A DNA stretch of 64,000 bases from Hemileia vastatrix (lineage: Eukaryota; Basidiomycota; Pucciniomycetes; Pucciniales; Zaghouaniaceae): positions 5,815,001-5,879,000 of the forward strand of contig JASXTE010000015.1 of NCBI GenBank assembly GCA_030280995.1, read 5' to 3'. The notes beneath the pieces were generated by a model. The model was not told where the DNA came from and made no database searches. It saw only the letters and a list, made by a program, of their open reading frames with translations. Both the position numbers and the translations under genes were made by a program. The first letter of the stretch is position 1. Every line of letters begins with the position of its first letter. This document shows positions 4,013 to 62,300 of the stretch, piece by piece.

Positions 4013-5469
4013 CTTTATTTTTATTTTTATTTTTATTTTTATTTTTATTTTTATTTTTATTTTTATTTTTATTTTTATTTTTATTTTTATTTTTATTTTT
4101 ATTTTTATTTTTATTTTTATTTTTATTTTTATTTTTATTTTTATTTTTATTTTTATTTTTATTTTTATTTTTATTTTTATTTTTATTTTTATTTTTATTT
4201 TTATTTTTATTTTTATTTTTATTTTTATTTTTATTTTTATTTTTATTTTTATTTTTATTTTTATTTTTATTTTTATTTTTATTTTTATTTTTATTTTTAT
4301 TTTTATTTTTATTTTTATTTTTATTTTTATTTTTATTTTTATTTTTATTTTTATTTTTATTTTTATTTTTATTTTTATTTTTATTTTTATTTTTATTTTT
4401 ATTTTTATTTTTATTTTTATTTTTATTTTTATTTTTATTTTTATTTTTATTTTTATTTTTATTTTTATTTTTATTTTTATTTTTATTTTTATTTTTATTT
4501 TTATTTTTATTTTTATTTTTATTTTTATTTTTATTTTTATTTTTATTTTTATTTTTATTTTTATTTTTATTTTTATTTTTATTTTTATTTTTATTTTTAT
4601 TTTTATTTTTATTTTTATTTTTATTTTTATTTTTATTTTTATTTTTATTTTTATTTTTATTTTTATTTTTATTTTTATTTTTATTTTTATTTTTATTTTT
4701 ATTTTTATTTTTATTTTTATTTTTATTTTTATTTTTATTTTTATTTTTATTTTTATTTTTATTTTTATTTTTATTTTTATTTTTATTTTTATTTTTATTT
4801 TTATTTTTATTTTTATTTTTATTTTTATTTTTATTTTTATTTTTATTTTTATTTTTATTTTTATTTTTATTTTTATTTTTATTTTTATTTTTATTTTTAT
4901 TTTTATTTTTATTTTTATTTTTATTTTTATTTTTATTTTTATTTTTATTTTTATTTTTATTTTTATTTTTATTTTTATTTTTATTTTTATTTTTATTTTT
5001 ATTTTTATTTTTATTTTTATTTTTATTTTTATTTTTATTTTTATTTTTATTTTTATTTTTATTTTTATTTTTATTTTTATTTTTATTTTTATTTTTATTT
5101 TTATTTTTATTTTTATTTTTATTTTTATTTTTATTTTTATTTTTATTTTTATTTTTATTTTTATTTTTATTTTTATTTTTATTTTTATTTTTATTTTTAT
5201 TTTTATTTTTATTTTTATTTTTATTTTTATTTTTATTTTTATTTTTATTTTTATTTTTATTTTTATTTTTATTTTTATTTTTTTTTTATTTTTATTTTTA
5301 TTTTTATTTTTATTTTTATTTTTATTTTTATTTTTATTTTTATTTTTTTATTTAGTTTTTTATTTATTTTTTTATTTATTATTTTTTTTTATTTTTATTT
5401 ATTTTTATTTATTTATTTTTTTTTTATTATTTTTTTTATTTTTTATTTTTATTTTTATTTTTATTTTTA
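4013..5469. repeat. (TTTTTA)n hexanucleotide microsatellite, about 1.46 kb
   Basis: About 210 uninterrupted TTTTTA units run to near 5279, then interrupted variants (TTTTTTTA, TTTA, TTTTTAG) to 5469. The open frame through it (alternating Phe-Tyr) is an artefact. The corresponding position in element B (about 15800-15835) has only a short AT tract with 18 T, so the expansion happened in this copy after divergence. The true length may differ from the assembly. Confidence 0.97.
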
Positions 5470-11968: not shown

Positions 11969-13216
11969 TTGAATTCTCTTAGGATCGAACCATCAATGAG
12001 TAACAATTTGAAAAAAAAACGGCCAGGGAAGAACTCTAACAATAGTTGGGCTAAAGACATTTCTACCAGAATGAAACTTGTAAATGCTCTTGGAATGGAT
12101 ACAAACAGGAAGAATCCACATTTCTATGCACGATCCTATGTAAATAATATGACAGATTGCAATAATTATTACAATTTTTTTCCTGGTTGTAGTATTTATA
12201 AACCAAAAGGTTTCTTAATACCTAATGTTCTTGTCCAGTTTTTTAAAATTCATGAGCTTAAAGAACTAGATATGTTAGAAGCTACAGCTCAATGCATTAA
12301 GGATCTTTCTTACTGAAAACATGAAATTAAAAATAATGGTTATCATCAAAGAGCTGGTGGTTTTGGAAAAAATTTTGGTTGTGGCTTTATTTTAGATAGG
12401 AAGAAATCTTTATATATTTGTAAGTATCACTTTTTTTAATTTAAATACTGAATTTTTGAATGCTTTTCTTGCAGATGAATAGACTGATGATATTGTACAC
12501 ACCAATAAATATAAAAAACTTATGAAGAGGATCAAAATTCACTTTGTATTTTTTTTATAAAAAATATCATATGTAAAGTACAACAAGGAAACTAATCTTT
12601 GTGCAAAACTTGGTATTCCTGGATTTTCAAAACTTTCTAATGAAGAAGAGGGTGTACCTTTTTCTAGTAATTTAACTTGGACATCTGGAGCAAATTGTAA
12701 TGTGTTCTCCAATGAGGTTCATCTTGATAAGGATGCAAAAGAGTATACTTTAGGAATATTAGTTTAGGAATATTTTTTCCTAAAGATACAGAAAACAATA
12801 CCGTTTATATGAAGTAAAATAAGACCCAACAAAGACAAACAGGTGGAGAACTTATGTTTCCCAAAATTGGAAGTAAAATTAACTTTGAAGCAACTAATGG
12901 AATAACAGTGACTTTATGGCCTTCCAATAAACTGAGGCATTTTATCTCAAGATGTCACAAAATTCCTGGTTTCACAAGGATAGGTTCTTCTATTCAAATT
13001 AGCACTAGACTTTTTCATGCTATAGAAAAGCTTCATGTTTTTGATATTGATATTTCAGAATACTTGGAAATTAAAGAAGAAAAAGATAGGTTTGATTATT
13101 TGATTAGTGCTTTGAGAGATTTTTTGAAAAGAGATGACTTAATAGAGGAAGAAATAGAATCAGCAAAGTATTATTTATCTAATGTTAAGAAAAATCTAAA
13201 AAAATTAGATATTTAA
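11969..13216 (+). pseudogene. Tet-like 2OG-Fe(II) dioxygenase 1 (broken)
   Basis: This is a broken gene resembling the fungal Tet-like 2OG-Fe(II) oxygenase family (TET/JBP related; known members oxidise 5-methylcytosine). An N-terminal open segment (11969-12314) and a C-terminal one (12854-13216) flank a decayed middle with a likely intron at 12420-12474 (GTAAGT..TGCAG). The core has LTWTSG, then the iron-binding HxD in VHLDKD (12720-12728), the strand GGELMFPKIG, a distal His in LRHFIS (12938-12940) and TRIGSSIQIS with the 2-oxoglutarate-type Arg. All putative ligands survive, but there are stops at 12314-12316 and 12765-12767 and near 12816. The stop at 12765 follows a 13-base tandem duplication. 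It aligns along its length with the minus-strand copy at 46828-47960. Confidence 0.75.
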
Positions 13217-21832: not shown

Positions 21833-24090
21833 GTTAAATTTAAAAAAATTACTGATCAAGGTGTTTCTTCTGAGAATAAAGAGGAATTGGATTTAATTGA
21901 TTATGATGAGGCTAATTCTGTGAGTTCCCATTTAACATGAAAATTAACTCAAATTAATCAATCATTGCCCCAATCAAGATGTGGAGATGGAGGAAGTAGT
22001 AATTCTGGTAGAAACAACTCAGGAACAGAAACCTGTAATAAACCCCCCAGAAGAACTTCCAAAAGGCTTCAAAATAAAAAAGATGCCACTAACTCAACAA
22101 TTAAAGAACCTTTTAACACACATAAAAGAATTAAGGACAGAAAAATTGAGATTGAGGTCAAGAGTAGATGCTCTAGAGGAAAAGGTAAGATAGATAGATG
22201 CTTTACTTCAAGAGAAGAGGAGACCTCCTCCCCCCAGGGATCTTCATCGATTGGCTCCCCAGCAGCCAGAGAAAGCTGAAGTATCCAAATGGAACTGGGA
22301 TTGGCTGAACACTCAGTGGGATTTTCTGTCTCAAAATCAACAGGTTCAATTGCCCCAAGCAGGTCCATCAAGACCCAGCCAAGTTCACCCCACACCTCCT
22401 CACCCCTATCAAGGAGAAAGAAGAAGAAAAAACAATATGATCTTGCCCAGAAAACCTTGGTAAGCACCTCTATTGATTCTCATGTACCATTCCTTGCAAC
22501 TAATTCAGTTCTTTCAGGTAATTCTGGAAGAGGAGATGAGACTGTGGGACCTGGAGAGGCTGAGAACAGTAGACAAATCGCTCAAATTTCAAATGTATCT
22601 AATCCTTTAGTTATAATTGCTCCTTCAATGATAAAAACTGATATGGCTATTATTGATGAAACACTTGAACCTGAGTTTTATGAGAATCTGGAAAGTTACT
22701 CTGTTTCCTTATTGAGAAACACTCCAGATGTAGCTAACATTAATGATGAATATTTGAGGGATAATATTTCAAAACAAAATTATACAATGAAAAACATGCA
22801 ATTGACTCATAAATATAATAGTTTTTAACTGAACAGGGTTATCAAGAATTAAGGAGTGAATTACAGAGATTTTCTGATGATTTTTTTCATGACAAGGCAA
22901 CCCATGAAAAGAAAGATGCTTTATGGCAAAATATAAAAATTATTTGTCTAAACTGAGAGATACTGTATCTGCATGCTTCCAGGAGCTGGAGATAGATAAG
23001 ATGAATCTGAAAATATTGAATGACCATTATTCATCTTTTCAAAATAAATATCATTTATATTTTGCAATAATCAAACGAAGTTTATCTAGTCTCCAAGAGT
23101 GAAAAACAGACTAACAACCATTGAGGAGAAATTGAACTCAATGTTTAATGATAATAAATATTCTGAAATTTCTTTAACGGAACATATAGTACAGGATGCT
23201 CCAAGGTTGCCTGTGGCTAGTTCATCTAAAGAAAAATTAGTTCCAGAAATACCTTTTGATACCACTAATTTTCCATCAAAAATTGATGATGCACCAGGAT
23301 CTTCAACAGAGGAATTAAACAATGTGATTACTGCACAATTAGAGAAGTTACAGCTGCTCCTTACTCAGAAACAAGCTGGTACTAAGGAGACTCCTTCAAA
23401 TCAAAAGAATTGGCCAAAACTTGACCAGTACCCAACATTTGATGGTGATTCTTCTTCTGATTGGCAGAAATTTATTTGCAGAATTGATAACTTAAAAAAT
23501 TCTTACAAACTCCCAGATGAGGAAATTGTGTCTTATTTAATTTCTTTGTTTACCAATTTTGCCCTAATGTTGTATGAATTTTTTCTCCTGGATGGGAATG
23601 ACTACTCATGGGAAGATTGAAAAAAATTGATTAAAGCACAATTTGGTGGCTCCAAGTTCAGAATGGATCAACAAAGGCAGTATGAGGAAACTAGATATAG
23701 CTCTTCCACTGATAAACCTATTGAGTTCTTAATAAAACTTGTAAAAATCTTGAGGGAAATAGACCCAAATATGGAGTTTGAGTTATGGAAGGACAGGATC
23801 CTCTATAAATTGCCAATGTCTCTGAGAGATTTGATAGTGGCTAGGACTGATTTCTCCAGAGAACCTTCTTCTTTCATTAATACTTGCAATGAAATCCTTC
23901 TAATACAAGTATGATTCCAGAAGATTCATTCCTAGAACCCCTTTGGAGAAATCCTCCACTTACCAACAGAAACCTCTGGAAAAGGTTGGTAAAACTTCTG
24001 CCCCTGTTGCACCTAGAAAGTATGCAAAAAACACTTGCTTCAAGTTCAACAAGCCTTGGCAGAAAGGCCATATTTGTGTCAAGAGGATAA
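21833..24090 (+). pseudogene. Gypsy gag (broken)
   Basis: Successive frames give a coiled-coil start (PLTQQLKNLLTHIKELRTEK...RSRVDALEEK), a Pro-rich stretch, and a capsid-like segment from about 23410 (WPKLDQYPTFDGDSSSDWQK ... LYKLPMSLRDLI). A degenerate zinc knuckle at 24033-24084 reads NTCFKFNKPWQKGHICVKR, where the second Cys of the usual CX2C is Phe. Gag packages element RNA. Frameshifts near 22195 and 22465, stops at 22826-22828 and through 22860-23100, and TGA at 23618-23620 make it nonfunctional. Confidence 0.85.
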
Positions 24091-24770
24091 ATATTGTTGA
24101 AAAAACTGAGGAGAAGGCTGATGACAAAATAGAACTTGATGATACTTCAAGTGCTTGTGCCAGCAATACTTCATATGAATCTCAACAATTAGTCTTGATG
24201 CTGAAAGAAGATATTCATTATTTAAATACTATTGATATTGATAACAATGATTTATCTACAGTTAAGGATGCTGATATCATAAGGAACATTGAGGATAGCT
24301 CAATTATAATTGCCCCTCTCAAAGCACCAGTCTTGATAAATGGAACCAGTATGGAAGTTGTTCTAGATTCTTGAGCTGGAGGAAGTGTAGTATCTGAAAA
24401 AGCACTTGCTTCAGTGGATCAAGACTATAAATCAAAACTGATGCCTATCACTTCTGAAAATAGGAGAGGTTATTGCTCTGTTTTGTCCCCCATTGGTAAA
24501 TACAAAGCAATAGTATTTTTTAAATATAACCATGGTTTTGTAAGAGCTATTTGTGATTTTGTTGTCATGAAAAATGATAATTTAAGCAGTTGGTTTATCA
24601 TAGGAAATGACATTTTAACCAAATATGGCATAAAATTAGATCCTTCAAACCAATGCTTCACAATGGGGATAAATGGGAAGGGAAAATTTAAGGTTTCCTC
24701 CCCCAAAAAATTATTAAAACCAGAATTGAACACATGTAATTCTGTGGTTCAATATAAAGGAAGATCTACA
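24091..24770 (+). pseudogene. Gypsy aspartic protease (stop in active site)
   Basis: The linker is followed by APVLINGTSMEVVLDS-stop-AGGSVVS. The expected active-site triad Asp-Ser/Thr-Gly has its Gly codon replaced by TGA at 24372-24374. The downstream fold continues with FFKYNHGFVRAICDFVVMK and FIIGNDILTKYGIKLD, the flap and the conserved Ile-Gly-Asn-Asp near the end of retropepsin-like domains. It would release mature gag and pol products. It is inactive here. Confidence 0.85.
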
Positions 24771-26218
24771 AAAGAAATGCATGCCCTTATGTCTGAAATT
24801 GACAATGTCTCTTTTGGAGAACAATTTTCTGGTGAGGATAAAGATTCGATCATTAACTTGATAAAGTCTTTTCCTATGGCCTTTGCTTATGGGTCTCATG
24901 AACTGGGATTAGTCAAAGAGGAAATGAATCTTTCATTGTCTTGTCCATTAACTGATATACCACCTAGTTCAAAGAAAAAGCCTATCCTTCTTCTCCCACA
25001 AAGAGAAAAGATATTGAAGACAATATCTCAACCCTTTTAAAAATGAATATTATTGAAAAGGTAGTTGAAACACCTAAATATTGTGTTATCTCACCTGTCC
25101 TTATTTCTTATGAGAAAGATAAATCCAGGTTATGTGGTGATTATAGAGCACTAAATACTTATACTGTTTATGATATCTATCCTTTACCTTGAATTAGCTC
25201 TATACATGCTACCTTACAGGGTGCTAAATATATCAGCTGTTTGGATGGTAATAAAGGATATCACCAGGTACCTGTTGAGAAAAATTCTCAGAATTTTCTG
25301 ATGATTGCTACTCATATGGGTATCTATAAGTATTCTTGAATGCCATTTAGCCCTAAAAATGCTCCTTCAGTTTTTTAAAAAGTTATGGATAACACATTCC
25401 ATCAGGAGATAATTGAAGGATGGCTGATGGTTTATATTGTTGATATCGTCATATTCTCAAAAACATTTGAGGAACATCTTCAACACCTGTGTAAAGTGTT
25501 CCACAAAATGGATGAAATAAATATGACACTTACTTTGAAGAAATGTAAATTTGGTTTTCCTTCCTTAAAAGTGCTTAGTCATTTTGTTTCAAGGTTACAG
25601 ATATGTGTTGACCAAAACAAAGTGGTATCCATACAGCAGGTGAACGCTCCTATCACAGTTAGAAAGCTCCAGAGTCTTTTGGGAATGTGTGGATACTATA
25701 GACTGTATATTAAAAATTACCAAGTCATAGTTTTACCCCTTACCCAATTAACTAGAAATGATTTTGCTTTTTTCTGGAATAGTGAAAGACAAAGAGCCTT
25801 TGACACTATGAAACACTGTTTGATGTCAGCACCTATTCTTGCTTTAACTGACTTTAATCAACCATTTGTTTTACATACTGATGCCAGTTTTATTGGTCTG
25901 GGTGCTGCCCTCCATCAAAAACAAGTGATGAATGATAAAGTATCAGAAGTAGTAATTTGTTATATTTCAAGATTCTTGAGAAATAGTGAGTTGAAATATG
26001 GTGTTACTCAATTGGAATTTTTAGCTGTAGTGTGGGCTCTTAAAAAGCTACATTATTACCTAGATGACCAGAAATTCGAACTTGTCACTGACTGCAGTGC
26101 AGTTAAATACCTTTTAAACTATAAAACACCTAACAGAAATATGTTCAGATGGAAGTTAGCTGTTCAGGAATACAGAGGGAGAATGAAAATTATTCATAGA
26201 GCTGGTATTGTTCACTAA
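24771..26218 (+). pseudogene. Gypsy reverse transcriptase and RNase H (broken)
   Basis: RT motifs appear in order: NIIEKVVETPKYCVISPVL, SRLCGDYRALNTYTVYDIYP, LDGNKGYHQVPV, MPFSPKNAPSVF, and the polymerase box at about 25430-25450 reading VYIVDIVIFS where YxDD is expected, so one catalytic Asp is Val. Stops occur at 25037-25039, 25190-25192, 25337-25339 and 25375-25377. The frame from 25385 to 26215 is open. RNase H is well preserved: VLHTDASFIGLGA (Asp), TQLEFLAVVWAL (Glu), ELVTDCSAVKYLL (Asp), then RWKLAVQEYRGRMKIIHRAG. Confidence 0.93.
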
Positions 26219-27310
26219 AATTTGGATATTTTATCAAGGTTACCTTTACCAAATGATGACTCTAATCCTGCTTATGATCCTGAGATGAAATTATTCATAT
26301 TCATGGGATATATATGGTTGATATGGAGGAAGAGCTATTACAGATTATTCTGGATTCATATGATAAGGACACTGACTTAAAAATTTTATGTACCATATTA
26401 AATGATCCAAAGAATGCTTCAATACAAGCATTAATAAAACCTTCCAACAAAGTACCAGAAGGCTTCTGAGAAAGGTAAATTTTCAATTGATGAAGGATAT
26501 ATATATTATAGAAGAAAGTTGAGTAATGTCATTTTTATTCCTCCTTCTATGAATGAAATCATCTTGAAAATTTGTCATGATGACATATTAGCTCGACATT
26601 TTGATCATGAAAAAACAATGATCAGAATTAAAAACACTGCTTGGTGGGTTAATATGTCTGAAGACACCAAATTATATGTTGAATCTTGTGATTCTTGCCA
26701 AAAATTAAAAAGATTGTCTGGTAAAAGAGCTGGATTAATGCAAAATATTGAACCTCCTGATGCACCATGGCAGATAATAAACATTAATTTTGTAACAGGA
26801 TTATCTATTGCTGGAAAATACAGTTATAAATCTTGTTGGGTTATTGTGGACATATTCACTAAAATGTGTAAATTTATCCCTACTCACAAGGATTTTTCCA
26901 CTAAGTAATTAGCTTTCTTATGGTGGTTTCATATGTTCAATACTGCTGGTTTTCCTAAAGCCATAATCTCTGACAGAGACCCTAAATTTACTTCTGAATT
27001 TTGGATGTCTCTGATGGATGTTTGTGGTTGTGATCTGAAACTATTTACTGTCCATCACCCTCAGACTGATGGATTAGCTGATAGAATGATTCATACTCTA
27101 GAGGACATGATAAGAAGTTACTGTGCCTTTGGCCTTGAGTATAAAGATAATTACAGATTCACTCATGATTAGGTCACCTTAATTCCTGGGTTAGAATTTG
27201 CCTATAATAGCACTGTTCATTCTGTTACTCAAAGAAAGCTTTTTGAGCTCTGGCTTGGATATGTTCCAAATACTCCTGCCAAAATCTCAATAATAAAAAA
27301 CCTAAATTGG
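26219..27310 (+). pseudogene. Gypsy integrase core (broken)
   Basis: The zinc-binding HHCC domain is visible in ICHDDILARHFDHEKTMIRI and VESCDSCQKLK. Catalytic core motifs are CWVIVDIFTKMCKFIPTHKD (Asp 1), KAIISDRDPKFTSEFW (Asp 2) and DGLADRMIHTLEDMI, in which the catalytic Glu is Asp; the fragment at 7131 keeps Glu. Stops lie at 26216-26218, 26906-26908 and 27170-27172, and the frame shifts after about 27300. Confidence 0.93.
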
Positions 27311-27870
27311 ATTTACATCCTGGTGTAAAGTCTTTTCTTCAAATGCAACAACTTTGCAGAAATCATGCTCAAATATGTATTTAAAAATCATTTGAATATG
27401 AGAAGAAGAGATGGGACAAATCCCTTAAAGAATACACTTTTAAAAATGGTGATGAAGTGTTGATTTCTACAGTCCACTTCAATTTACAAGGAAATAACAA
27501 ATTAAAAGACCCAATTGTTGGTCTATTTTTTGTCAGAAGAATGATTGGAGAAAATGCAGTTGAGGTTATTTTGTATTCTCCATATGACAGAAAACATCCT
27601 GTTTTTCCAATATCTCTTCTGAAACCTTACACATCTAATAGTGATTTATTTCTAAAAAGGAGGGGAAGACCAAAGAAAACCTTAAATGAAATCACTGAAA
27701 CAGCAGAAATTGAAAAAACTCTGAATGACAGAATAGTCACTGCTGAAAAATGTACAGAATACTTATTGAGATCCAAGAATAAATCATCTGAATATGATTC
27801 TTGGATACCTGGGAAGGATATATCTAATCTTTCTACTCTACTAAAAAAGTATAAAAAGAAAAAATCATAG
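27311..27870 (+). pseudogene. Gypsy integrase C-terminus with chromodomain
   Basis: The open frame from 27457 covers the post-core domain (RRMIGENAVEVILYSPYDRK..FPISLLKPYTSNSDLF), a basic RRGRPKK segment with an AT-hook-like GRP, and a chromodomain-like end: EIEKTLNDRIVTAEK, EYLLRSKNKSSEYDSWIPGK, LLKKYKKKKS-stop at 27868-27870. Chromodomains of chromoviruses direct integration to methylated-histone chromatin. The same domain is intact in the element at 63248-63811. Confidence 0.85.
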
Positions 27871-42719: not shown

Positions 42720-43125
42720 GTGGTGTATGGTTTGAAAAATATAAGCTCTTTCATTTTGTTTTAGCTGGAGATAGTATTGGTTGGCCAGTTTTCAGATTGA
42801 TATATGAGAAATTTTTAAAAGTAAGATAATTGGCGTCATTCCTATTGATACAAATCTTTTTGTGGAATCCTGAATGAGTAACAATAAAATTTGAAAATAA
42901 CAGATATTGGTTGCTAATGGATATTAAATTTTATTCACACCAATTTGCTATTCCATCTTTGTTAGTAAGTTGATGATTCTTTTTAAAAGATTTATAGCTG
43001 AGTTTTTTGAGGCAAAGAGCAAGAAAAGTATTAAAAGATGGTAAGGTATACCATTAGAAAAAATTGTCATCTTTTTCAGCTTTAAATAATTTTTTAAGTA
43101 AAGAATAAATGCCTATGGAAATAAA
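42720..43125 (-). pseudogene. Tet-like 2OG-Fe(II) dioxygenase 4 (remnant)
   Basis: Reading minus, it parallels the gene at 59360: LPSFNTFLALCLKKLSYKSF, NHQLTNKDGIANWC, LLFSNFIVTHSGFHKKI, then NYLTFKNFSYIN and TGQPILSPAKTK. At the iron-binding HxD position it reads CIN, so the motif is lost. Homology stops just after the TGQP..SPAK segment, before the distal His. Stops occur within. It is a nonfunctional remnant. Confidence 0.7.
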
Positions 43126-44830
43126 ATGAGTGACATGATTTTAAGAATGAAACATATATTATCCAACATACCAAGAGCATAGCCTTTTACAAATCCTGAT
43201 CTAAACAAGAAATAAATTAAATGAAATTTAGAAAAAAGGCTCAACTTTAAAGTTCATTATCTCAGCAAAAACTGAACCAAATTCAAATCCATTTATGGGA
43301 AATAAAAAATAGGCTTTAGAAGAAACTTCAGTCAAAATAGCATAATATTTAAAAAAACATAACCCTAGTTTTGACTGTGATTTTCAAAATTGCAAAAAAA
43401 TTTGAAAATTGATTATTAAAATTCCAACAAGATGGAGATATAAGCCAAGATAATCATCAGACAAGAGTTTCAGAAGCTTTATTCTCTAATTATGAAATAT
43501 AAAAACATAAAATAAATTAAGTAACATTTGTATAAAAAGGCTCAACTTTTAAGGTCAAAATCTCAGCAACCATTGAGCCAATTTCAAACCTGTTTGTGGG
43601 AAATAAAAGATAGGCTTCAGGAGAGCCTTTATTTAAATAAAATGTGATTTAAATAAAACTAACCCTAATTTTTTACATAAAAATTAAAAATAAAATAAAA
43701 TAAATTGGGAAAAAAGGCTCAAATTTAAAGGCCAATATCTCAGCAATTACTGAACCAAATTCAAATCTGTTTGTTAGAAATGAGAGGTAGTATTCAGGAG
43801 AAACTTCAGTTAAAAGAAAATTAGATTTGAATGAACCTAAACCACATTCTGAATCTGATTTTCAAAATTTTACAAAAATTTGAAAAGTGGTAATGGAGAT
43901 GAGAACAAGAAGATTTTATTAATTCCACAGTTATCCAGGTTTCAGTCATGCATATATTTAAGTATGAAATTTTTATATAAGGAAAGAGATATCATTTAGG
44001 GGTAAAAAAAATGATAAAACTTACCTTTATTGAAAAGTAGGAAAAAGAGATTGAGAAGGAATGATGTTGGAATTTAGGGGAACTTGGTTGTGGAGTAAGT
44101 GAAATGCATAAAGAATTTGAATTGTACGGATTTTAATGACATGGAACCAAAAAAAGGAAAAAAGAGGAAAGGGGGATATTGACCATGGAAAGGAGGATTG
44201 ATGAGTAGGTGATGGAGCTAAAAAAGAAAGAGAAATAGGAAGAGACAAAGAATGTTCATTTTACCATAAAAATCAAAAATAACCACTTTCAAAAAAAATT
44301 AAATACAAAAAAGAGATAAAAAACAGGAAAAAATACAAAAGAAATATAATTAGCAATAAAAGGATTAAAAAAATGAATAAAATGACTTACTTGGAGAGAT
44401 GTGATGAGAAAATAAATAAAACCAAATTGTTTGAGAGATTTTTGAGGAGAGGAGGAAAGGATATGAGGGATAAAATGAAAAAATAAACAGTGAAATATTA
44501 TGTGATTTCAGAAAATATGAAATTTCATGTTGAGCTAGTGAATGAAAACAAATAAGAAATTTAAAAAAGAGACATTCAGCATAAATTCAAAATAAAAATT
44601 AATTTGCAAAAAAAACACCAAACCAAGTGAATAAAGCACACAAGTAGAAAATCTGGAGAGTATGAAAAAAAATTAAAAGGGTTGTGTTTCAAAATGTTGG
44701 AAGGTGATTGGCATAATGACAGAGCATATTCTGGTTGAAAGAATGTTTTCTGATTCAAGGGAGGGGAGAGCTGGTTCAGTTTTAGGATTCTCTTCTTCAT
44801 AAAGATCATTGAAAAGTCATATAAGCTAAA
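43126..44830 (-). repeat. Inverted upstream region of a Harbinger/Tet element
   Basis: In reverse complement this matches 58130-59300 of the complete element: ACTTACTCCA...CAATTCCAACATC-like sequence (44030-44115), ATCCCTCATATCC (about 44455) and ACTCTCCGAATG-like sequence (about 44660). It contains three tandem copies (43238, 43545, 43717) of a roughly 70-base motif, CTCAACTTTAAAG...CTCAGCAA..ACTGAACCAA; the complete element has two (about 59000 and 59190). It presumably holds promoter and 5' introns of the dioxygenase gene. Confidence 0.7.
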
Positions 44831-44835
44831 GTGTC

Positions 44836-45520
44836 TTCCAAATCTTAGTCAGAATCATAGTCAGAAGCTAAAGTTAAAGTTATAGCATTCATAGCTGAGT
44901 GAAGTTGCTTCTTATCAGAGAGAAACTTTATTATTGTTGGTAGAAGGTTTAGATGATGAGTGGGAAGTGGGAATTCGACACCAAATGAGAAAGTGGGGTG
45001 TGTAAATAGAAAAAAATGTTATGTGTTCACCACCAAAATTAAGTAGCAAAGAGCGAAGTGACACATATGGATGAGAAAAAAATTTAAATTTTTGCCACCA
45101 AAATTAAGTAGCATATAGTTAAGAGAGACATAAGGATGGCATCTGCAATTGTATGTCATGTTACTTTATTACAAATTAATAATGGATGTGATGAGTTTGG
45201 GATCAGGAATTACAAATGGAAAATGGTGTATAAGAGGTGGGATAATGCATTATTGTGTATTCCTTATCCACTAGCCAAATTCCATCCTTATGTCTCTCTT
45301 CACTCTATGCTACTTAATTTTGGTGGCAAACACTTTACATTTTTTTCTATCTACAAAACCCACCTGCTTATTTGGTTGCAAATTCCCACTTCCCACTTAT
45401 CATATAAACCTTATACTAAAAATAATAAAGTGTCTCTCTACTAGGAAGCCACTTCACTCAGCTATGAATGCTATCACTTTAACTTTAGCTGCTCACTCTG
45501 ATTCTGAATTGGGTTTTGAA
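44836..45520. repeat. Large inverted repeat with about 280-bp arms
   Basis: Arms 44836-45125 and 45245-45520 are reverse complements with moderate divergence (shared GTGGGAAGTGGGAATT, CATTCATAGCTGAGTGAAGT, GCCACCAAAATTAAGTAGCA). Each arm carries the 5' end of a Harbinger-type gene, so two copies meet head to head. The motif CCACCAAAATTAAGTAGCA is also directly repeated within the left arm (45020 and 45087). Confidence 0.75.
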
Positions 45521-46597
45521 GACTCTTTATCTTATATGTCTTATCTTTCCAAAAAGTGTTACATCATTCAAAGGGTACAATATTTACCATGATCCAAGAT
45601 ATGATCTTGCCTATGTTCTTGAAATTCATCATTTAAACTTCACAAAACTTTTTCAAACTTCTCCTGATTCTTTTTTTAAACTTTTTCAACTCATTTTTGA
45701 TAATCCTATCTCCCATAATAATTTCCATAACAAACAGTGTAATCCTGCCTTTCAACTTGCTGTTGCACTAATTGGCTTTGGTTCAAATGTAAGTGGTGCT
45801 ACTGTAACTTGTTTAGATAATTTATTTACAATAAGATATGGTACCATCATATTATAAACCAAGTGCTGTATGATTGCTATCCTTTCTTTCAAGTCTCAAA
45901 CACTTGCTTGGCCAACTCCACAACAGCAACTTGAATCCTCTCAAATAATGTAAGCTGAAGGTTTCCCTGGCTGTGTAGATTTTTTTGATGTTACAGCAAA
46001 ACCTTTGAGCCAAAAGCCTACTCATGATTGAAACCATTCTTTTGATTTCAAAAAAAGGTTTCTTCAAAAATGTTCTCAAATTTTACTTCAAGAGTAACAT
46101 TTTTTCTTCTTTATAGATACTCTATTGATTTTCAACCTGTGTGTAATATTAATAAAATGTCTATTATTTTTCATAGTGGCTACCCAAGCTCATTTAATAA
46201 CTCTTTTGTGTTCAAAAGGATGAATATTTCTCAAAATCCTGACCATTACTTTGACAAATCTCAGTACCTCCTTGAAAACTCAGCATATTCAAGTGGAATA
46301 TATATTATACCTGCATTCTGACGTACAACTTTGGAAAATGACCCAAAAACATCTTTTAATTATCATCTTAAACAATCAAGAGTACTAATTGAGCATGCTA
46401 TTAGAATTTTAAAAGAGTGATTTTCTAGTCTCCAGGAACTCAGAATCAAATTTCAAAAAAAATTGGAAATCACAACTGAAAATCATTTGATAATGACTTG
46501 CATTATACTCCATAATATCTTGGCTTATTTAAAGGATAAGTTATATGATATTTATGAAGAAGATAATCCTGAATCTGCACCAGCTTCCCCCCCTTGA
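45464..46597 (+). pseudogene. Harbinger-like transposase 1 (HARBI1/DDE_4, broken)
   Basis: The ATG at 45464 opens MNAITLTLAAHSDSELGFED, shifts frame near 45555, then FTKLFQTSPDSFFKLFQLIF and QLAVALIGFGSNVSGATV form the helical N-terminal domain. The catalytic region reads AEGFPGCVDFFDVTAKPLSQ (first Asp kept), SGYPSSFNNSFVFKRM (second Asp of the usual HDS replaced by Asn), ENSAYSSGIYIIPAF, then RVLIEHAIRILKE, FSSLQELRIKF and MTCIILHNILAYL, typical of the DDE_4 end. Stops occur at 45855-45857, 45948-45950, 46319-46321 and 46420-46422. It would be about 360 residues, normal for HARBI1-type proteins. It faces the dioxygenase gene at 46828 tail to tail. Confidence 0.85.
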
Positions 46598-46827: not shown

Positions 46828-47960
46828 TTAATTATTATTATAAATTTCTAAACAACCAGTATTATCCAATAATTTTTGAAGAAAACTATCATGTAAGTAT
46901 TCTAACTTTTCTTTTTCTTTCATTTTTATATAATCAGAAATAAAAACTTCTGGTATAAGCATTTTAAATGTTTTAATAGATTTTGATAGTCTTTTGCTGA
47001 TTTGAATTGAAGAACCTAGCCTTGTAAGGCTACCAAACTTTTTTAAACGTGTGGTTTGATGATATAGTTTGTTAGAAGGCCATATAAACACCCATATACC
47101 ATCACACCTCTCAAACTCCACGATATACTTGAGCTCTGGAAAGATAAAGTGGCCTCTAATTTGTCTAGGTGTTCCTTCTTTCCAAGAATTATCATCCAAA
47201 AGTACATCACAAATTGTGGCCCACTAAACGCCCAGGATATTATTGCTGACATCCAAATCTTTGTGTGGCACATTTGAAAAGCCTCCAGAAGTCCAAGTTA
47301 AATTGCCTCCAAGAGAATTAAAAGCAACATAGCCAGGAAGATCTAATTCAGTCACCATTTTCAGAGAGTTATTATAGTACTTTGAAGCAAGAAGCTTAAA
47401 GAAAAAGGTGTAAAAAGAAAAGATGAATCTTAAATCTTGCCATACTTTTTCATAATCTATTTTTAAATTTATATTAAGAACTAGAGATTTAATAAGTATA
47501 ATGAAGTTTAAAAATTAATAAATTTAATTACTGATGTTGAATATATGTTGAGTAGCAGCTCTTTCCCCAGCATCATACATATTACCCTCATCACATCCTT
47601 TTTTGTGAGCAGAAGAGGTCTTTATTTTATGCCGCAAATTTCTTAGATATTCACAACATTTCCTGAAATCTTCAAGAATCCCCAAGCTCTTTAATTTTTA
47701 AAGCTCAAAGTACTTCAAAATCACTGGAAGAATTTCATGATTAGAAGTTTGAATCACTTAAGTTTTGGGTGAGAAATGAGCTTTTTGATAGGTCCCAGTG
47801 CTGTAAGAGTAAGACAATGCAGGGATAGGGCCATGAGATGTGACAAACTCCTGAAATGGATATGTTTGGTACCAAATCTCTTCAAAATAAGTTCCCACCT
47901 TATTTCTCCAGGCCTCCCCCTCCATTCTGAAATGAGAGATCTTATTTGGATGTCCATTTC
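46828..47960 (-). pseudogene. Tet-like 2OG-Fe(II) dioxygenase 2 (broken)
   Basis: Minus-strand order: an N-terminal segment (YPFQEFVTSHGPIPALSYSY), ILPVILKYFEL, SLGILEDFRKCCEYLRNLRH, YDAGERAATQHIF, and an intron (GTAATT..TCTAG, about 47533-47483). The core follows: PGYVAFNSLGGNLTWTSGG, VPHKDLD with the HxD at about 47257-47265, GHFIFPELKYIVEFERCDGI, LYHQTTRL with the distal His, LTRLGSSIQISKRL with the Arg, ending at 46828. Stops lie near 47227, 47700 and 47759. The predicted iron and co-substrate residues are all retained, so the parent gene was a plausible active dioxygenase. The closest relative in the window is the gene at 11969. Confidence 0.78.
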
Positions 47961-47999
47961 CTCTTCTTTTAATATTAAATCTGCTTTAAATTAAAAAAA

Positions 48000-56590: not shown

Positions 56591-57012
56591 CACATCACTA
56601 TGCCTTAAGTAAGATATTGCTGATGGGGATATCCAGTTTAGGTTGGGGATATTTTAGTAAGTGACATAAGGTCAGAAAAATAAATGGAAAAAAAGTAAGT
56701 GCAAGAAAAATCATTTGCAACCATGAGAATTTTTTTTATTTCCAAAAAATGAAAAAGGTAAAAAAAAAAGAAAAGTAAAGTAAAAATAAAAAATTAAAAT
56801 AAAAGATCAGTATTTTGAGAAAAAATAAAAAACAAAATTTCCCATGGTTGCAACATATTTTTCTCACACTTATTTTTCACACATATTTTTTTTGCACATA
56901 TTTTCCTTGCAGTTTTTTTTCTCCCACATATGTTTCTTACACATATTTTTCAATCCTTATATCCCTCCCTGCAATATACCCAACTTGCACTGGATATCCC
57001 CATCAGGGATAT
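56591..57012. mobile_element. Foldback (inverted-repeat) element, interrupted copy
   Basis: The left arm contains GATGGGGATATCCAGTTTAG, GGGGATATTTTAGTAAG, then AAGTAAGTGCAAGAAAAATC and CAACCATG. The right arm is its complement: CATGGTTGCAACATATTTTT, TATCCCTCCCTGCAATATAC, GGATATCCCCATCAGGGATA. The arms are about 180 bp with an A/T-rich centre. The element resumes after the solo LTR at 61556. No coding capacity. Confidence 0.75.
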
Positions 57013-57682
57013 TGTCAAGGGGTCCTTTTGGTCTAGAAGTTTATTTGAGGTTATACTAAGATTTTTAGGGTTTTAATGGACTCTCAAAAGTATGGTACAT
57101 ATTTCTTAATCAATTTGATTGTTTTACTCAAATAATAAGAGGTAGTGTTAAATCTTAATATATTTTATAGATTAGAAATAAGTTGATGTAAATACTAATG
57201 TTATAAAGTATAGAAATAATAATTGATTTGTTGTGAATGTAATAAATAAGTAAATAAGGAATGAATCAAAAAGACAAACAGGAAAGGCTTTTATAGGCAA
57301 AATGTGAGAAAATAAAACATGGAATTACCACCCCCTAGTACAAGAGTATGAAAGGAAAAACTTAAATAATGAGAGTATGTGAAGTAATAAGAATAAGTCT
57401 AAATAGTGCGTAAATAAAAGAATTTCTTTTATTTGAAATAAAACTATGAACCATTTAGTCCGTCACATTTTAGTGTAAGAAAATTTGATTTGAAATATAG
57501 AATCAATAAAATCTAATTAAAGGAATTTGAAAAAGAATTTTTTCTTTTTATAATTTTATATATTTTTTTAATACTAATTTTTATTCCCATCTCATCTGTA
57601 TTATTGAGCACGGTGTTTGGGAGTAAAAATATATGTGGGACAATTACTTATTTTTATTAATTAATTACTTAGTGTACTTATT

Positions 57683-57714
57683 AGGGGGTGTCAGTTCTGG
57701 CAAATCCGCACTTA
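57683..57714. repeat. Left terminal inverted repeat (32 bp)
   Basis: Identical to the reverse complement of 61392-61423. Confidence 0.95.
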
Positions 57715-59359
57715 ACTTAAGTGCGGATTTCAAACCAAATCAGCACTTACAAATCAGCACTTAAATTTTGCAAAAAAGTCACTTATTTCAAAAAAGGGTG
57801 TCAGTTATGACCTCAAATCAGCACTTTTTTCCCGTTTTTTTCACAACCACATTTTGGCCACAAAACATCCCTTCCTTTCTTACCCCATCCCTGTCACGTG
57901 TGACACACTGACCTTCCTCGCTACCTACCCATCAATCCTCGGCACACACCCCTTCCTGACATTTTCAATATTTTGACCAGGCATGTTTACATTCTTTTTT
58001 ACTTATTTCTTCTACTTCTTAATCTTTTTTCTATGGGTGTCAGTTCTGACCTCAAATCAGCACTTTTTTCGTGATTTTTTTTTCAAAACCACATGTTGGC
58101 CACATCATCGCTTTCTTTCCCATACCATTTTGTACTCTCCGAATGTCCTCTTTGTGTACTTCATTCACTTGGGTTGGTATTTTGGTTTGTTGCATATTCA
58201 TTTTTTTAGGAATTTACGGTGAATTTTTTTTTTTTGGATGGCTCATTGGTTTTCTTTCACCAGCTCAACATGAAATCGCATATTTTCTGAAATCGCATAT
58301 TTTGTCAGTGATTTTTTTTTTTCATTCATCCCTCATATCCTTTTCCTATTCTCCTCCAACATCCCTCAAACAATTTGGTTTCATTCATTTTGTCATCTCA
58401 TCTCTCCAGGTAAGTCACTTTATTCTTTTTTTTTGATTTTTTGATTACTAATTATAATTTTTTTTTGTTTTTTTCTGTTTATTTTATTTTTTTTATCTAA
58501 ATTTTTTTTGTAAGTGGTTATTTTGGATTTCAATGTTATAATTAACCTTTTTTTTCTCTCCCTCTTTACTTTCTTTTTTAGCTCCATCACCCTACTCTTC
58601 ATCCCTCCTTGGCATGGTCATTATCCCCCCTTTCCCTTATTTCACTTTTTTTTGGCTCCATTTCATTGAAACACATACATTGCACATTCTTTATGCATTT
58701 CACTTACTCCATATTCAATTTCCCCACAATTCCAACATCAATCTTTCTCACTCTATTTTTCCTACTTTTCAATCAAGGTAAGTTTCATCTCCTTTTTTTC
58801 ATGCCTATATGATATCTCATTCCTTTTATGAAAAGTTCATACTTAAATATATGTATGACTCTTTTCTGGATAACAGTGAACTTATAAAACTCCTTTTGAT
58901 CTCATCTTCATTACCACTTTTCAAGTTTTTGTAAAATTTTGAAAATCAGACTCGGAATTAGGGTTAGGTTTATTCAAATCTAATGTTCTTTTTACTAAAG
59001 ATTCTCCTGAAGGCTACCTTTCATTTCCCACAAACAGATTTGAATTTGATTCAGTGGTTGCTGAGATATTGACCATTAAAGTTGAGCCTTTTTTTTCCCA
59101 ATTTAAATTTTTATTTCATTTTTTTATGTAACAAATTAGGGTTAGGTTTATTTAAATCACATGTCCTTTAACTGAAGATTCTACTAAAGCATATCTTTCA
59201 TTTCCCTCAAACAGGTTTGAATTAGGTTCAGTGGTTGCTGAGATTTTGACCTTTGAAGTTGAGCCTTTTTTCCGAATTTCACTTGTCTTATTTCACATTT
59301 TTATATTGCATATTTAGAGGATAAGGATTCTGAAACTCTTATATGATTATTATCTAGGC
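57715..59359 (+). promoter_or_regulatory. Upstream region of the transposon-borne dioxygenase
   Basis: It contains subterminal repeats, pyrimidine-rich tracts, possible splice donors in TCTCCAGGTAAGT (about 58406) and AATCAAGGTAAGTTTCA (about 58773), a splice acceptor ATTATCTAG just before 59360, and two copies of a GTTGAGCC-containing motif with TCAGTGGTTGCTGAGAT (59058 and 59228). Upstream noncoding exons or short coding exons are likely but not certain. The region is conserved in inverted form at 43126-44830. Confidence 0.5.
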
Positions 59360-59944
59360 ATGTATCCGTTGCTCAAGAATATCACTAAATCTCAAAAAGA
59401 TGAAGAATTTTGCTTATGGGACACTCTACCTTCCTTTAACTCTTTTCTTGCTCTTCGACTCAAAAAGCACTGTAATAAAGCATTTGAAAAAAATCATGAA
59501 CTTGCAACCAAAGTTGGAATACCGAATTGGTGTGACTCCGAATGGGAAGATATCAGCCACGAATATCTTTTATTTTCTAATGTTATTATCACTTATTCTG
59601 GATTTCACAATAAAATTCACACTGATACCAAGGACACCAATTTTCTTACTTTTGGTATATTCTCATATATCAAACCGATTACTGGCCAACCAATACCATC
59701 TCCAGCTAAAATCAAATGACATGGTTTATGTTTTCCAGACAACCGGTGCATCATTGATTTTGGTTTGGGAAATGGTATCATCGAAACTATTTGGAATTCT
59801 TCTAAGGATAATCATCAAACGACCAAAGCTCTTCCTGGTTTGGAATCCTGACAACATTTAACACATTTTGGTTGCTCATTTCAAATCAGTCATAAGTTGA
59901 TTCAAAGAATCAATAAGGTAATGAAAGAAGGTAAAGTTAATTGA
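59360..59944 (+). pseudogene. Tet-like 2OG-Fe(II) dioxygenase 3 (in transposon)
   Basis: The frame from ATG 59360 (MYPLLKNITKSQKDEEFCLW) runs through YSGFHNKIHTDTKDTNFLTF, where HxD is 59617-59625, then FSYIKPITGQPIP. After an in-frame TGA at 59717-59719 it continues GLCFPDNRCIIDFGLGNGII, NHQTTKALP with the distal His (59813-59815), a second TGA at 59849-59851, and THFGCSFQISHKLIQRI to 59944. The usual Arg in TRxGxSxQIS is His here. The single frame across two TGA codons shows recent decay. About 195 codons survive; upstream exons may exist. Family function (known): iron and 2-oxoglutarate-dependent oxidation, in relatives of 5-methylcytosine. Substrate here is inferred only. Confidence 0.78.
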
Positions 59945-60298
59945 TTTAAAAAAACTTTATTTAGATCCAAAAAGTATGGGGATTAGAGTTGTCATCAAAA
60001 ATTTTATATTTTTTTGTAAATTTTTAATAAATATTTTTTATGTATCAATTTCCTCAACTAAAGTAATGGGCCCACGACCTTGTGTTGTATAAATGGTAAT
60101 CATGATAACATTTATTTGTTTCATGGGGTTCCTCTAGCCTATACCTGTGGAAAGTCCCAAACTTTTGTTTCTAGATTTGATCTGCATTTTGGCTTAAGGG
60201 ATTGTCATTACTTTAAACTAGGGAAATTGATATATATTGGATATTTATTTAATAATTTACGTAATTATATTAAATTTAGATGACTTCCACCACTTACT

Positions 60299-60465
60299 TC
60301 AATAAAATGCAGGGGGGGGTATTGCCAAATTTTCAAATCTGACATGTGAAATTGATGACTTAGAAAAATTTTGGTGATATCAACCCCTTGCTTCAATAAA
60401 ATGCAGGGGAAAGTATTGCCAATTTTTTAAAACAGATATAGAATTTTTTTGACTTGTAAATATTT
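60299..60465. repeat. Tandem direct repeat, about 87-bp unit
   Basis: CTTCAATAAAATGCAGGGG, GTATTGCCAA and TTTTGGTGA recur at 60299 and 60386. It lies between the two convergent genes, where the C-terminal part of the transposase has been lost. Confidence 0.75.
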
Positions 60466-61115
60466 TGGTGAAAATTTTTGACGAGAATGTGAAAGTAATT
60501 GTTTCCACCTTGAGCAGGTTTCTGGCTCAAAGGAATAGCAGTACCATCAACAAAACCAATACATCCTGGGAAGCCCTCTGCTTGCATAACCTGAGATGAT
60601 TCAAGTCGCTCTTCTTTTGTTGGCCAGGTGAGAAGTTGAGATTACAATGAGTTGATGGCACTGATACATTGTTTGGTATAAGTGTTAATTGAACCATACC
60701 CTAAATCAAAGACATTTTCTAAACGTTTCAAAGCAGCTCCATTACCATTTGAACCCAAATGACATAGTGTGATGGCCAATTGAATTGAAGGATGTTGTTG
60801 TTCTTTTTGAGAATTATTGTGAAATATGGGATGATCCTGAATAAGCTCAAGCAATTTAAGGAAACATTCCTGAGAAGTCCTGAACAGCTCTCTAAAACTG
60901 GGTGTAGATAGTTTAAGAAGTGTTTGGATGGTGTACTTGGGGGTATGAAGTACTTGAGGCTTTCTGGGAAGAAGGTAACGTTTCCTGGCCATTTTTGATA
61001 AAACGACAAAATCTTCTTCTAGATCAGAATCGGAATCAGAGTCCAAGAGCAGTTCAAGAGCCATGAAAGTCATTGCTTTATGTAATTTATCACGATTTGA
61101 AAGTGAGGAAGGCAT
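60466..61115 (-). pseudogene. Harbinger-like transposase 2 (N-terminal half)
   Basis: On the minus strand the ATG at 61115 opens MPSSLSNRDKLHKAMTFMAL, an acidic DSDSDSDLEED patch, LPRKPQVLHTPKYTIQ, and the helical domain SFRELFRTSQECFLKLLELI and QLAITLCHLGSNGNGAALKR. After a TAA at 60642-60644 the frame continues TWPTKEERLESSQVMQAEGF, then PGCIGFVDGTAIPLSQKPAQ with the first catalytic Asp in VDGT. Homology ends after GGNNYFH, so the second catalytic residue, the third and the LHN-type end are deleted. It aligns well with the copy at 45464. It cannot be active. Confidence 0.87.
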
Positions 61116-61391
61116 GACTCTTATATGATATGATATGAAGATGTAAGTGATGTTCGATGTTTTGAGTTATGAAGTGTTATGCTGCGGAGTGCTGCGTATG
61201 AATGGGATGATGCTGACAAATCAGTGAAATGGGACTTGATGGTGAAATCAGCACTTTTGGTTGAGAAAGTGCGGATTTGAGTGAAATAAGTGACTTATTT
61301 CATTTTGAAATCCACCAGTATTGGGGCTAGTGTGTTTTGGAAATCCGCACTTATTTAAGTGCGGATTTGGTCAAATTTAAGTGCCGATTTG

Positions 61392-61423
61392 TAAGTGCGG
61401 ATTTGCCAGAACTGACACCCCCT
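61392..61423. repeat. Right terminal inverted repeat (32 bp)
   Basis: Reverse complement of 57683-57714, with subterminal AAATCCGCACTT copies just inside. Confidence 0.95.
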
Positions 61424-61555
61424 ATTTAGTTATTTGTAATTAATAAATAAGTATTTAATAAATAATTTATTATTAATAAGGATCTAAAAGGCGTGGCTTC
61501 ACCTCAGTAAGATAATTAATTATTTTACTGGGTAAGTCTAGTAGCCTGGCTGACA

Positions 61556-62300
61556 GATATTATAGTTGGTGCATAGTGTGTGGATATCCTGTGCAAGTTG
61601 GGGATATTGTAGGGAGGGGCATTAGGATAGAAAAAAATGTGTAAGTAAAATATGTGCAGGAAAAATATGAGTAAGAAAAATATTTTTGAAAACAATACAC
61701 TATGCACCAAGTAAGATATATCTGATGGGGATATCCAGCACAAGTTAGTGATATTTTAGGGAGGGACATAAGGTCAGAAAAATATATGTAAGAAAAGTAA
61801 GTGTGAGAAAAATAAGTGTGAGAAAATTAAATGTAAGAAAAATCATGTGCAACCATGAGAATGTTTTTTTTTTCAAAAAAAAATTGTAAAAAAAAAAGAA
61901 AAAGATAAAAAATGAAATAAATAATCATTTTTTTGGAAAAAAAAAATTAATTTTTTTTTTTCCCATGGTTTCACAATATTTTTCCTACACTTTCTTTTCT
62001 CACATATTTTTTTCTACATATTTTCCTTACACATATTTTTCTTGCACTTACTTTTCTTACATATATTTTTCTGACCTTACACTATGCACCAAGTGAGATA
62101 TCGCTGATGGAGATATCCAGCCTGTGTTGGGAATATAGTAGGGAGGGACATAAGGATAGAAGAATATCTGTAAAAAAATATTTTTAAGGAAAATATGTGA
62201 AAAAAAAATGTGAGAGAAATATGTGCAAAGAAATGTGAGAAAATAAGTGTAAGAAAAATATCTTGCAACCATGTAAAGAATTTGGAACTCGGAAACTCCA
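61556..62300. mobile_element. Cluster of foldback repeats
   Basis: At least three further copies or half-copies of the family at 56591: around 61590-61690, 61700-61850 paired with 61960-62080 (arms joined by an A/T-rich centre between CAACCATG and CATGGTTT), and 62090-62280. Shared strings are GATATCCAGCACAAGTT, GGGAGGGACATAAGG and AAAATATGTGTAAG. Open frames here are artefacts of the low-complexity arms. Confidence 0.8.

What the first reader, a model, noticed from the sequence alone, without database searches (positions are those of the whole stretch)
57683..61423. Complete-ended Harbinger transposon carrying a Tet-like dioxygenase
Seen: 32-bp identical inverted ends, 3-bp ATT duplication, a HARBI1-type transposase (minus) and a 2OG-Fe(II) domain with HxD (HTD) and distal His (plus), tail to tail. 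Known: TET/JBP-family genes have been reported linked to fungal DNA transposons of the KDZ class. A link with PIF/Harbinger, inside defined ends, is not one I know as described. Inference: the element may use cytosine oxidation to escape methylation silencing.
Basis: partly seen in the sequence, partly recalled or inferred. Interest (0 to 1): 0.92.

Follow-up and report, generated by a model that had tools for sequence, protein, structure and literature searches.

The report
Decayed Harbinger transposon carrying TET gene
This is a worn-out copy of a jumping gene, probably from a rust fungus, that carries a broken relative of the TET enzymes acting on DNA methylation marks; the pairing is real, but jumping genes of this kind were described in December 2025.

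Summary
The element is real: perfect inverted ends, the first half of a Harbinger-type transposase on the minus strand, and a Tet-like 2OG-Fe(II) oxygenase gene (PF20515, E 5.5e-17) tail to tail with it. The duplication can be read as ATT or TA; TA fits better, because the perfect inverted repeat runs through TA on both sides.

This copy is dead. The oxygenase frame has two in-frame TGA codons, the first between HTD and the distal His; the transposase has a stop and lacks its second half.

The novelty claim fails. Kojima (PMC12730594, Dec 2025) describes 15 TET-carrying Harbinger families with TA duplications ("PHISTA") from six rusts and proposes the same escape from silencing.

Added here: a second copy of the leader+TET cassette lies in the window beside another Harbinger lineage, in opposite orientation to its transposase. 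Between the copies the TET frame shows dN/dS 0.35, against 0.87-1.19 in the non-coding leader. So the gene was selected before it decayed, and the cassette seems to move between lineages with its leader. The genome-wide copy test did not complete (13 tries).

The parts
57682..57683 (.). left target duplication read as TA (ATT at 57680-57682 is the alternative)
57684..57714 (+). left terminal inverted repeat, 31 bp under the TA reading (32 bp from 57683 under ATT)
57702..58065 (.). left subterminal repeats: 6 copies of AAATCMGCACTT, both strands
57796..57841 (+). internal end-like repeat, first copy
   Evidence: (D13)
58035..58080 (+). internal end-like repeat, second copy
   Evidence: (D13)
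58133..59359 (+). leader of the TET gene, shared with copy A; candidate introns 58410-58581 and 58778-59357 by eye only, with a 177-bp tandem duplication at 58956-59304
59360..59716 (+). TET-like dioxygenase, first piece with HTD at 59618-59626; TGA follows at 59717-59719
   Evidence: PF20515, E 5.5e-17 for 59318-59716
59720..59848 (+). TET-like dioxygenase, second piece with distal His at 59813-59815; TGA follows at 59849-59851
   Evidence: PF20515, E 9e-8
59852..59941 (+). likely C-terminal piece of the dioxygenase (no Pfam hit of its own)
   Evidence: weak match to 47028-46972, E 0.17
59945..60491 (.). unrecognised stretch between the two genes, with a 94-bp tandem repeat at 60289-60471
60492..61115 (-). 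first half of a Harbinger-type transposase, in-frame stop at 60642-60644
61245..61404 (.). right subterminal repeats: 6 copies of AAATCMGCACTT, one with a mismatch
61392..61422 (-). right terminal inverted repeat
61423..61424 (.). right target duplication read as TA (ATT at 61424-61426 is the alternative)
42730..44662 (-). copy A of the leader+TET cassette, 1283 of 1601 aligned columns identical, broken
44688..44931 (-). internally deleted transposase remnant next to copy A, same strand
45430..46590 (+). transposase B, both halves present but with stops, of another Harbinger lineage

Best explanation
57682-61424 is one decayed copy of a TET-carrying Harbinger-type DNA transposon of the PHISTA kind, very probably in a rust fungus. 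Shown: matching ends with subterminal repeats, the first half of a Harbinger-type transposase, and an interrupted Tet-like dioxygenase gene tail to tail with it, inside one pair of ends. Inferred for the family: the transposase binds the terminal and subterminal repeats and cuts and pastes the element at TA sites; the dioxygenase, when intact, oxidises 5-methylcytosine on element DNA and so reduces silencing and C-to-T decay. This copy makes neither protein whole and could move only by a transposase from elsewhere. The leader+TET part looks like a cassette that has changed partner between Harbinger lineages (inferred from two copies).
For: Ends perfect over 33 bp with TA on both sides; 12 of the window's 15 subterminal 12-mers (0.98 expected) lie inside the element near its ends; transposase E 3e-65 to P0008, relatives with a named organism being 20 rust of 21 named, of 47; PF20515 E 5.5e-17 and 9e-8; dN/dS 0.35 for TET and 0.26 for the transposase against 0.87-1.19 in the leader; published PHISTA lineage with the same gene content and TA duplications.
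Against: Only one copy with these ends was seen; the genome search did not complete. The duplication may be ATT, not TA. The third protein of published TET+ Harbinger families was not recognised here. Published end sequences and gene order (figures, supplement) could not be compared. No structure support: PDB searches and the model were uninformative. TET synonymous divergence (0.68) far exceeds leader divergence (about 0.2), so leader and frame may have separate histories.
Confidence: 0.82

Rival explanations
1. The TET gene is a passenger of this one copy: a piece of another TET-carrying element that was inserted or copied into a plain Harbinger element, not a member of its gene set.
For: The same cassette sits in opposite orientation beside another Harbinger lineage, and at least two more PF20515 loci lie in the window. 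The stretch between the genes is unrecognised.
Against: The cassette lies wholly inside the ends, tail to tail; the published lineage carries TET as a regular gene; the TET frame was under selection.
Confidence: 0.13
2. A 3-bp-duplicating (ATT) canonical PIF/Harbinger or Nuwa-type element that took up a TET gene independently of PHISTA.
For: ATT is present on both sides.
Against: The symmetric TA that extends the perfect inverted repeat to 33 bp; no Myb/SANT hit among the pieces scanned; closest named transposases are from rusts, where PHISTA is reported.
Confidence: 0.12
3. The dioxygenase or transposase call is a chance or mistaken match.
For: Both genes are broken; PDB sequence search and the structure model gave no support.
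Against: PF20515 E 5.5e-17 and 9e-8; transposase E 3e-65; codon-like divergence in both genes with wrong-frame and leader controls.
Confidence: 0.02

Closest known systems
PHISTA: TET+ Harbinger transposons of rust fungi (Kojima 2025, PMC12730594)
   Same: Harbinger-type transposase and TET/JBP gene in one element, rust-type relatives, TA on both sides
   Different: This copy is broken in both genes and no third protein was recognised; end sequences and gene order could not be compared because figures and supplements were not available
Canonical Harbinger and Nuwa transposons
   Same: Transposase superfamily, short duplication, inverted ends
   Different: They make 3-bp duplications and Nuwa carries a Myb/SANT protein (PMC12730594); none was found here, and a TET gene is present
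KDZ transposons with TET/JBP genes (Iyer et al., as cited in PMC12730594)
   Same: TET/JBP gene carried by a fungal DNA transposon
   Different: Transposase here is Harbinger-type; Zisupton and Dileera make 8-bp duplications
ESTA, another TET+ rust lineage with TA duplications (PMC12730594)
   Same: TA duplication and a TET gene
   Different: ESTA transposases resemble RAG1 and EnSpm; here the transposase matches DDE_Tnp_4 Harbinger-type proteins

Membership tests
PHISTA (TET+ Harbinger) | Harbinger-type transposase clustering with rust Harbinger families | tested here: inconclusive
   First half matches rust DDE_Tnp_4 proteins; the second half is missing and no tree against the published set could be made
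PHISTA (TET+ Harbinger) | TA target duplication | tested here: inconclusive
   TA is present on both sides, but ATT is an equally valid match of letters
PHISTA (TET+ Harbinger) | TET/JBP dioxygenase gene inside the ends | tested here: met
   PF20515 E 5.5e-17 and 9e-8, broken by two TGA
PHISTA (TET+ Harbinger) | third protein without Myb/SANT domain | tested here: inconclusive
   No third protein recognised; only two further frames, 60396-60641 minus and 60062-60280 plus, were scanned with no hit
PHISTA (TET+ Harbinger) | published end sequences | not testable with these tools
   Figure 1 and supplements of PMC12730594 not available
TET/JBP, PU type | HxD and distal His of the iron site | tested here: inconclusive
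   HTD and a distal His are present in frame but separated by a TGA
TET/JBP, PU type | place in the PU-type tree | not tested
   No TET homologues were returned
KDZ transposons | KDZ transposase and 7-8 bp duplication | tested here: not met
   Harbinger-type transposase; the flanks agree for 2 or 3 bp, not more
Nuwa | Myb/SANT second protein | tested here: inconclusive
   Not found in the six pieces of the element scanned; not every frame was scanned

The most novel reading that the evidence does not exclude
In this genome the TET gene travels as a portable cassette with its own roughly 1.2-kb upstream leader (probably promoter and untranslated exons), exchanged in either orientation between Harbinger lineages whose transposases have diverged to saturation at synonymous sites, and kept by selection as an anti-silencing module not tied to any one transposon family.
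Probability: 0.4. Interest if true: 0.5.

Novelty: new member of a known kind. Interest (0 to 1): 0.3.

Why it matters
It is an independent sequence-level example of a transposon carrying a putative DNA-demethylation gene. The two cassette copies suggest that the gene was under selection while it travelled with Harbinger elements, and that it may take its upstream leader along when it changes transposon. The published comparison found no signature at the ends of TET genes exchanged between superfamilies (PMC12730594).

Tried and rejected
Chance inverted repeat: rejected, 32-33 bp perfect. KDZ element: rejected by the transposase and the flanks. Another 2OG fold family: PF20515 was the only credible Pfam match of the TET pieces; the other row, zf_ZIC, had E 0.15. 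PDB sequence search with the first TET piece: 22 weak rows, best E 0.063, all ferritins but one transferrin-binding protein; with a 4-row alignment: 0. Structure prediction of the first piece with 4 rows: mean pLDDT 36.7, so no fold search was made. Protein search with the first TET piece: 1 candidate, none accepted, so no TET tree. End pattern: 0 in viral contigs; an 18-base core gave 4 bacterial contigs in genome contigs, near the 7 or so that chance would give in 257 billion bases (own estimate), so taken as chance. Rfam: 0. Another end for element B by its own left-end sequence: only the two head-to-head copies. In one search the cut at KKR/EKR fell too early in 3 of 10 relatives (P0002, P0003, P0007), so I count the other 7.

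Full report
Ends. 57683-57714 and 61392-61423 are identical as inverted repeats. The perfect inverted repeat is 33 bp, 57682-57714 / 61392-61424, and so includes TA on each side. TA fits the published lineage and explains the extra symmetric bases; ATT is not excluded. Matches this short are weak evidence (chance p about 0.024 for 3 bp, 0.083 for 2 bp). The 12-mer AAATCMGCACTT, with up to one mismatch, occurs 15 times in the window against 0.98 expected; 12 of the 15 are in the element, six at 57702-58065 and six at 61245-61404. Two longer end-like repeats lie at 57796-57841 and 58035-58080. I read these as transposase binding sites; that is inference.

Transposase. The minus-strand frame 61115-60492 matches Harbinger-type transposases: 55% identity over 208 columns with P0008, E 3e-65. 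A search with the 174-aa frame gave 4 proteins; one with P0003 gave 47, of which 21 carry an organism name: 15 Austropuccinia psidii, 3 Puccinia, 2 Phakopsora, 1 Podila. Some carry PF13359 (DDE_Tnp_4). The frame has an in-frame stop (60642-60644). Its match ends at the Tyr-Phe after GFVDGT, just before the KKR after which P0008, P0009 and P0012 end or diverge, presumably at an intron. Alignments with P0003 and P0027 run on to 60411 and 60363 with low identity. Second halves of relatives were then tried alone: of 10 cut, 3 were cut too early; of the other 7, none matched the element better than E 0.57, while 6 of 7 matched transposase B at 46118-46582 with E 1.2e-6 or better. So the second half, with the later catalytic residues, appears absent.

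Dioxygenase. The plus-strand gene begins at an ATG at 59360, just after a plausible splice acceptor (by eye). Piece 59318-59716 scores PF20515 at E 5.5e-17 (profile 59-159) and piece 59720-59848 at 9e-8 (profile 177-211); 59852-59941 has no hit. TGA codons at 59717-59719 and 59849-59851 break the frame; the first lies between HTD (59618-59626) and the distal His (59813-59815). Profile positions 1-58 have no match. In the last piece a His stands where two other TET-like genes of the window have Arg (aligned by eye). A product ending at the first stop could not hold the iron site. The PDB searches and the structure prediction (pLDDT 36.7) were uninformative.

Other copies in the window. blastn of the element against the window found copy A of the leader and TET gene at 44662-42730, minus strand, 1283 of 1601 aligned columns identical. 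Copy A is more decayed: the HTD position reads CIN and it has its own stops. It lies just downstream of, and on the same strand as, an internally deleted transposase remnant (44931-44688). That remnant is 84% identical over 263 bp to transposase B (45430-46590 plus), which lies head to head with it. B shares 364 of 614 aligned bases with the element's transposase; the remnant and the element share 42% over 36 residues. Two further PF20515 loci lie at 47514-46831 minus (E 2.8e-6 and 3.5e-7) and 12561-13213 plus (E 1.1e-6 and 4.6e-4, the latter below Pfam's cut-off). So the same leader+TET cassette stands beside two diverged Harbinger lineages, in opposite orientation relative to the transposase. 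That the orientation differs because the cassette moved, rather than by inversion, is inference.

Selection and decay. Between the element and copy A the TET frame (119 codons, 2 with a stop dropped) gives dN/dS 0.35, bootstrap 0.21-0.56; the two wrong frames give 0.73 and 1.55, and the three frames of the leader 0.88, 1.19 and 0.87. The transposase against B (203 codons, 4 dropped) gives 0.26 (0.14-0.42 from the 899 of 1000 finite bootstraps), wrong frames 0.71 and 1.58, with dS 1.7, near saturation. Both genes were thus under purifying selection for part of their history. Against a simple story: TET dS (0.68) is well above leader divergence (about 0.2), and nucleotide identity is 74% in the TET gene against 80-84% in the leader parts. 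Separate histories, constraint on the leader, or faster decay of CpG-richer coding sequence are all possible. Both copies read TGA at the position of the first stop, by inheritance or parallel decay. CpG observed/expected is 0.18 in the window, 0.37 in the element, 0.06 in copy A, and 0.10 and 0.24 in the flanks. The element thus keeps more CpG than its flanks, but some other stretches of the window keep more still (up to 28 per 2 kb), and I did not date it. Of 13 element CpGs aligned without gaps, none is CpG in copy A and 8 are CA or TG. TCG is under-represented in the window (134 against 191 expected from dinucleotides), though not in the element itself, where it is the commonest NCG (27 of 80, both strands). 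The window figure fits the TCG-biased decay that PMC12730594 cites for Pucciniomycotina.

Prior work. Of PMC12730594 (Kojima, Biology, 4 Dec 2025) I saw the abstract, the introduction, part 1 of 3 of the Results, section 3.4, part 1 of 2 of the Discussion, figure legends and passages. It reports TET+ transposons of many lineages, among them 15 TET+ Harbinger families with TA duplications from six rust species, named PHISTA, with a third protein; it holds that the genes pass passively between transposons and may counter methylation and C-to-T mutation. In the listings it was the first of 8 papers, the only one holding PHISTA with Harbinger, first of 9 and first of 14; I read no other paper. Figures and supplements were not available.

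Open. Copy number, intact copies, the duplication and the host species need the host assembly, which the search tool did not reach in 13 tries. The host is probably a rust fungus, by its transposase relatives (20 of the 21 with a named organism), but it is not identified here.

Noticed in passing
window 46831-47514 (minus), perhaps starting near 47985: A second, diverged TET-like gene (PF20515 E 2.8e-6 and 3.5e-7) lies tail to tail with transposase B.
   Followed up: partly
window 12561-13213 (plus): A third TET-like locus (PF20515 E 1.1e-6, and 4.6e-4 below the cut-off) in two frame pieces; its transposon was not identified.
   Followed up: partly
window 44811-45545: Two Harbinger copies lie head to head (263-bp arms, 84% complementary), one with its transposase cut down to its first and last few dozen codons, like a deletion derivative.
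   Followed up: partly
window 58133-59716 against 44662-42754: Leader sequence, candidate introns included, is more conserved between the copies (80-84%) than the TET gene (74%); not explained.
   Followed up: partly
window 4014-5469: A 1.45-kb array of the hexamer TTTATT (about 243 copies, 97% match).
   Followed up: no
window 56596-57012 and 61551-62195: AT-rich repeats with a 15-base period, in inverted arrangement, flank the element on both sides; perhaps another repeat family.
   Followed up: no
window 22280-27870: A Gypsy-like retrotransposon, judged from its open frames only, with CpG observed/expected 0.05.
   Followed up: no
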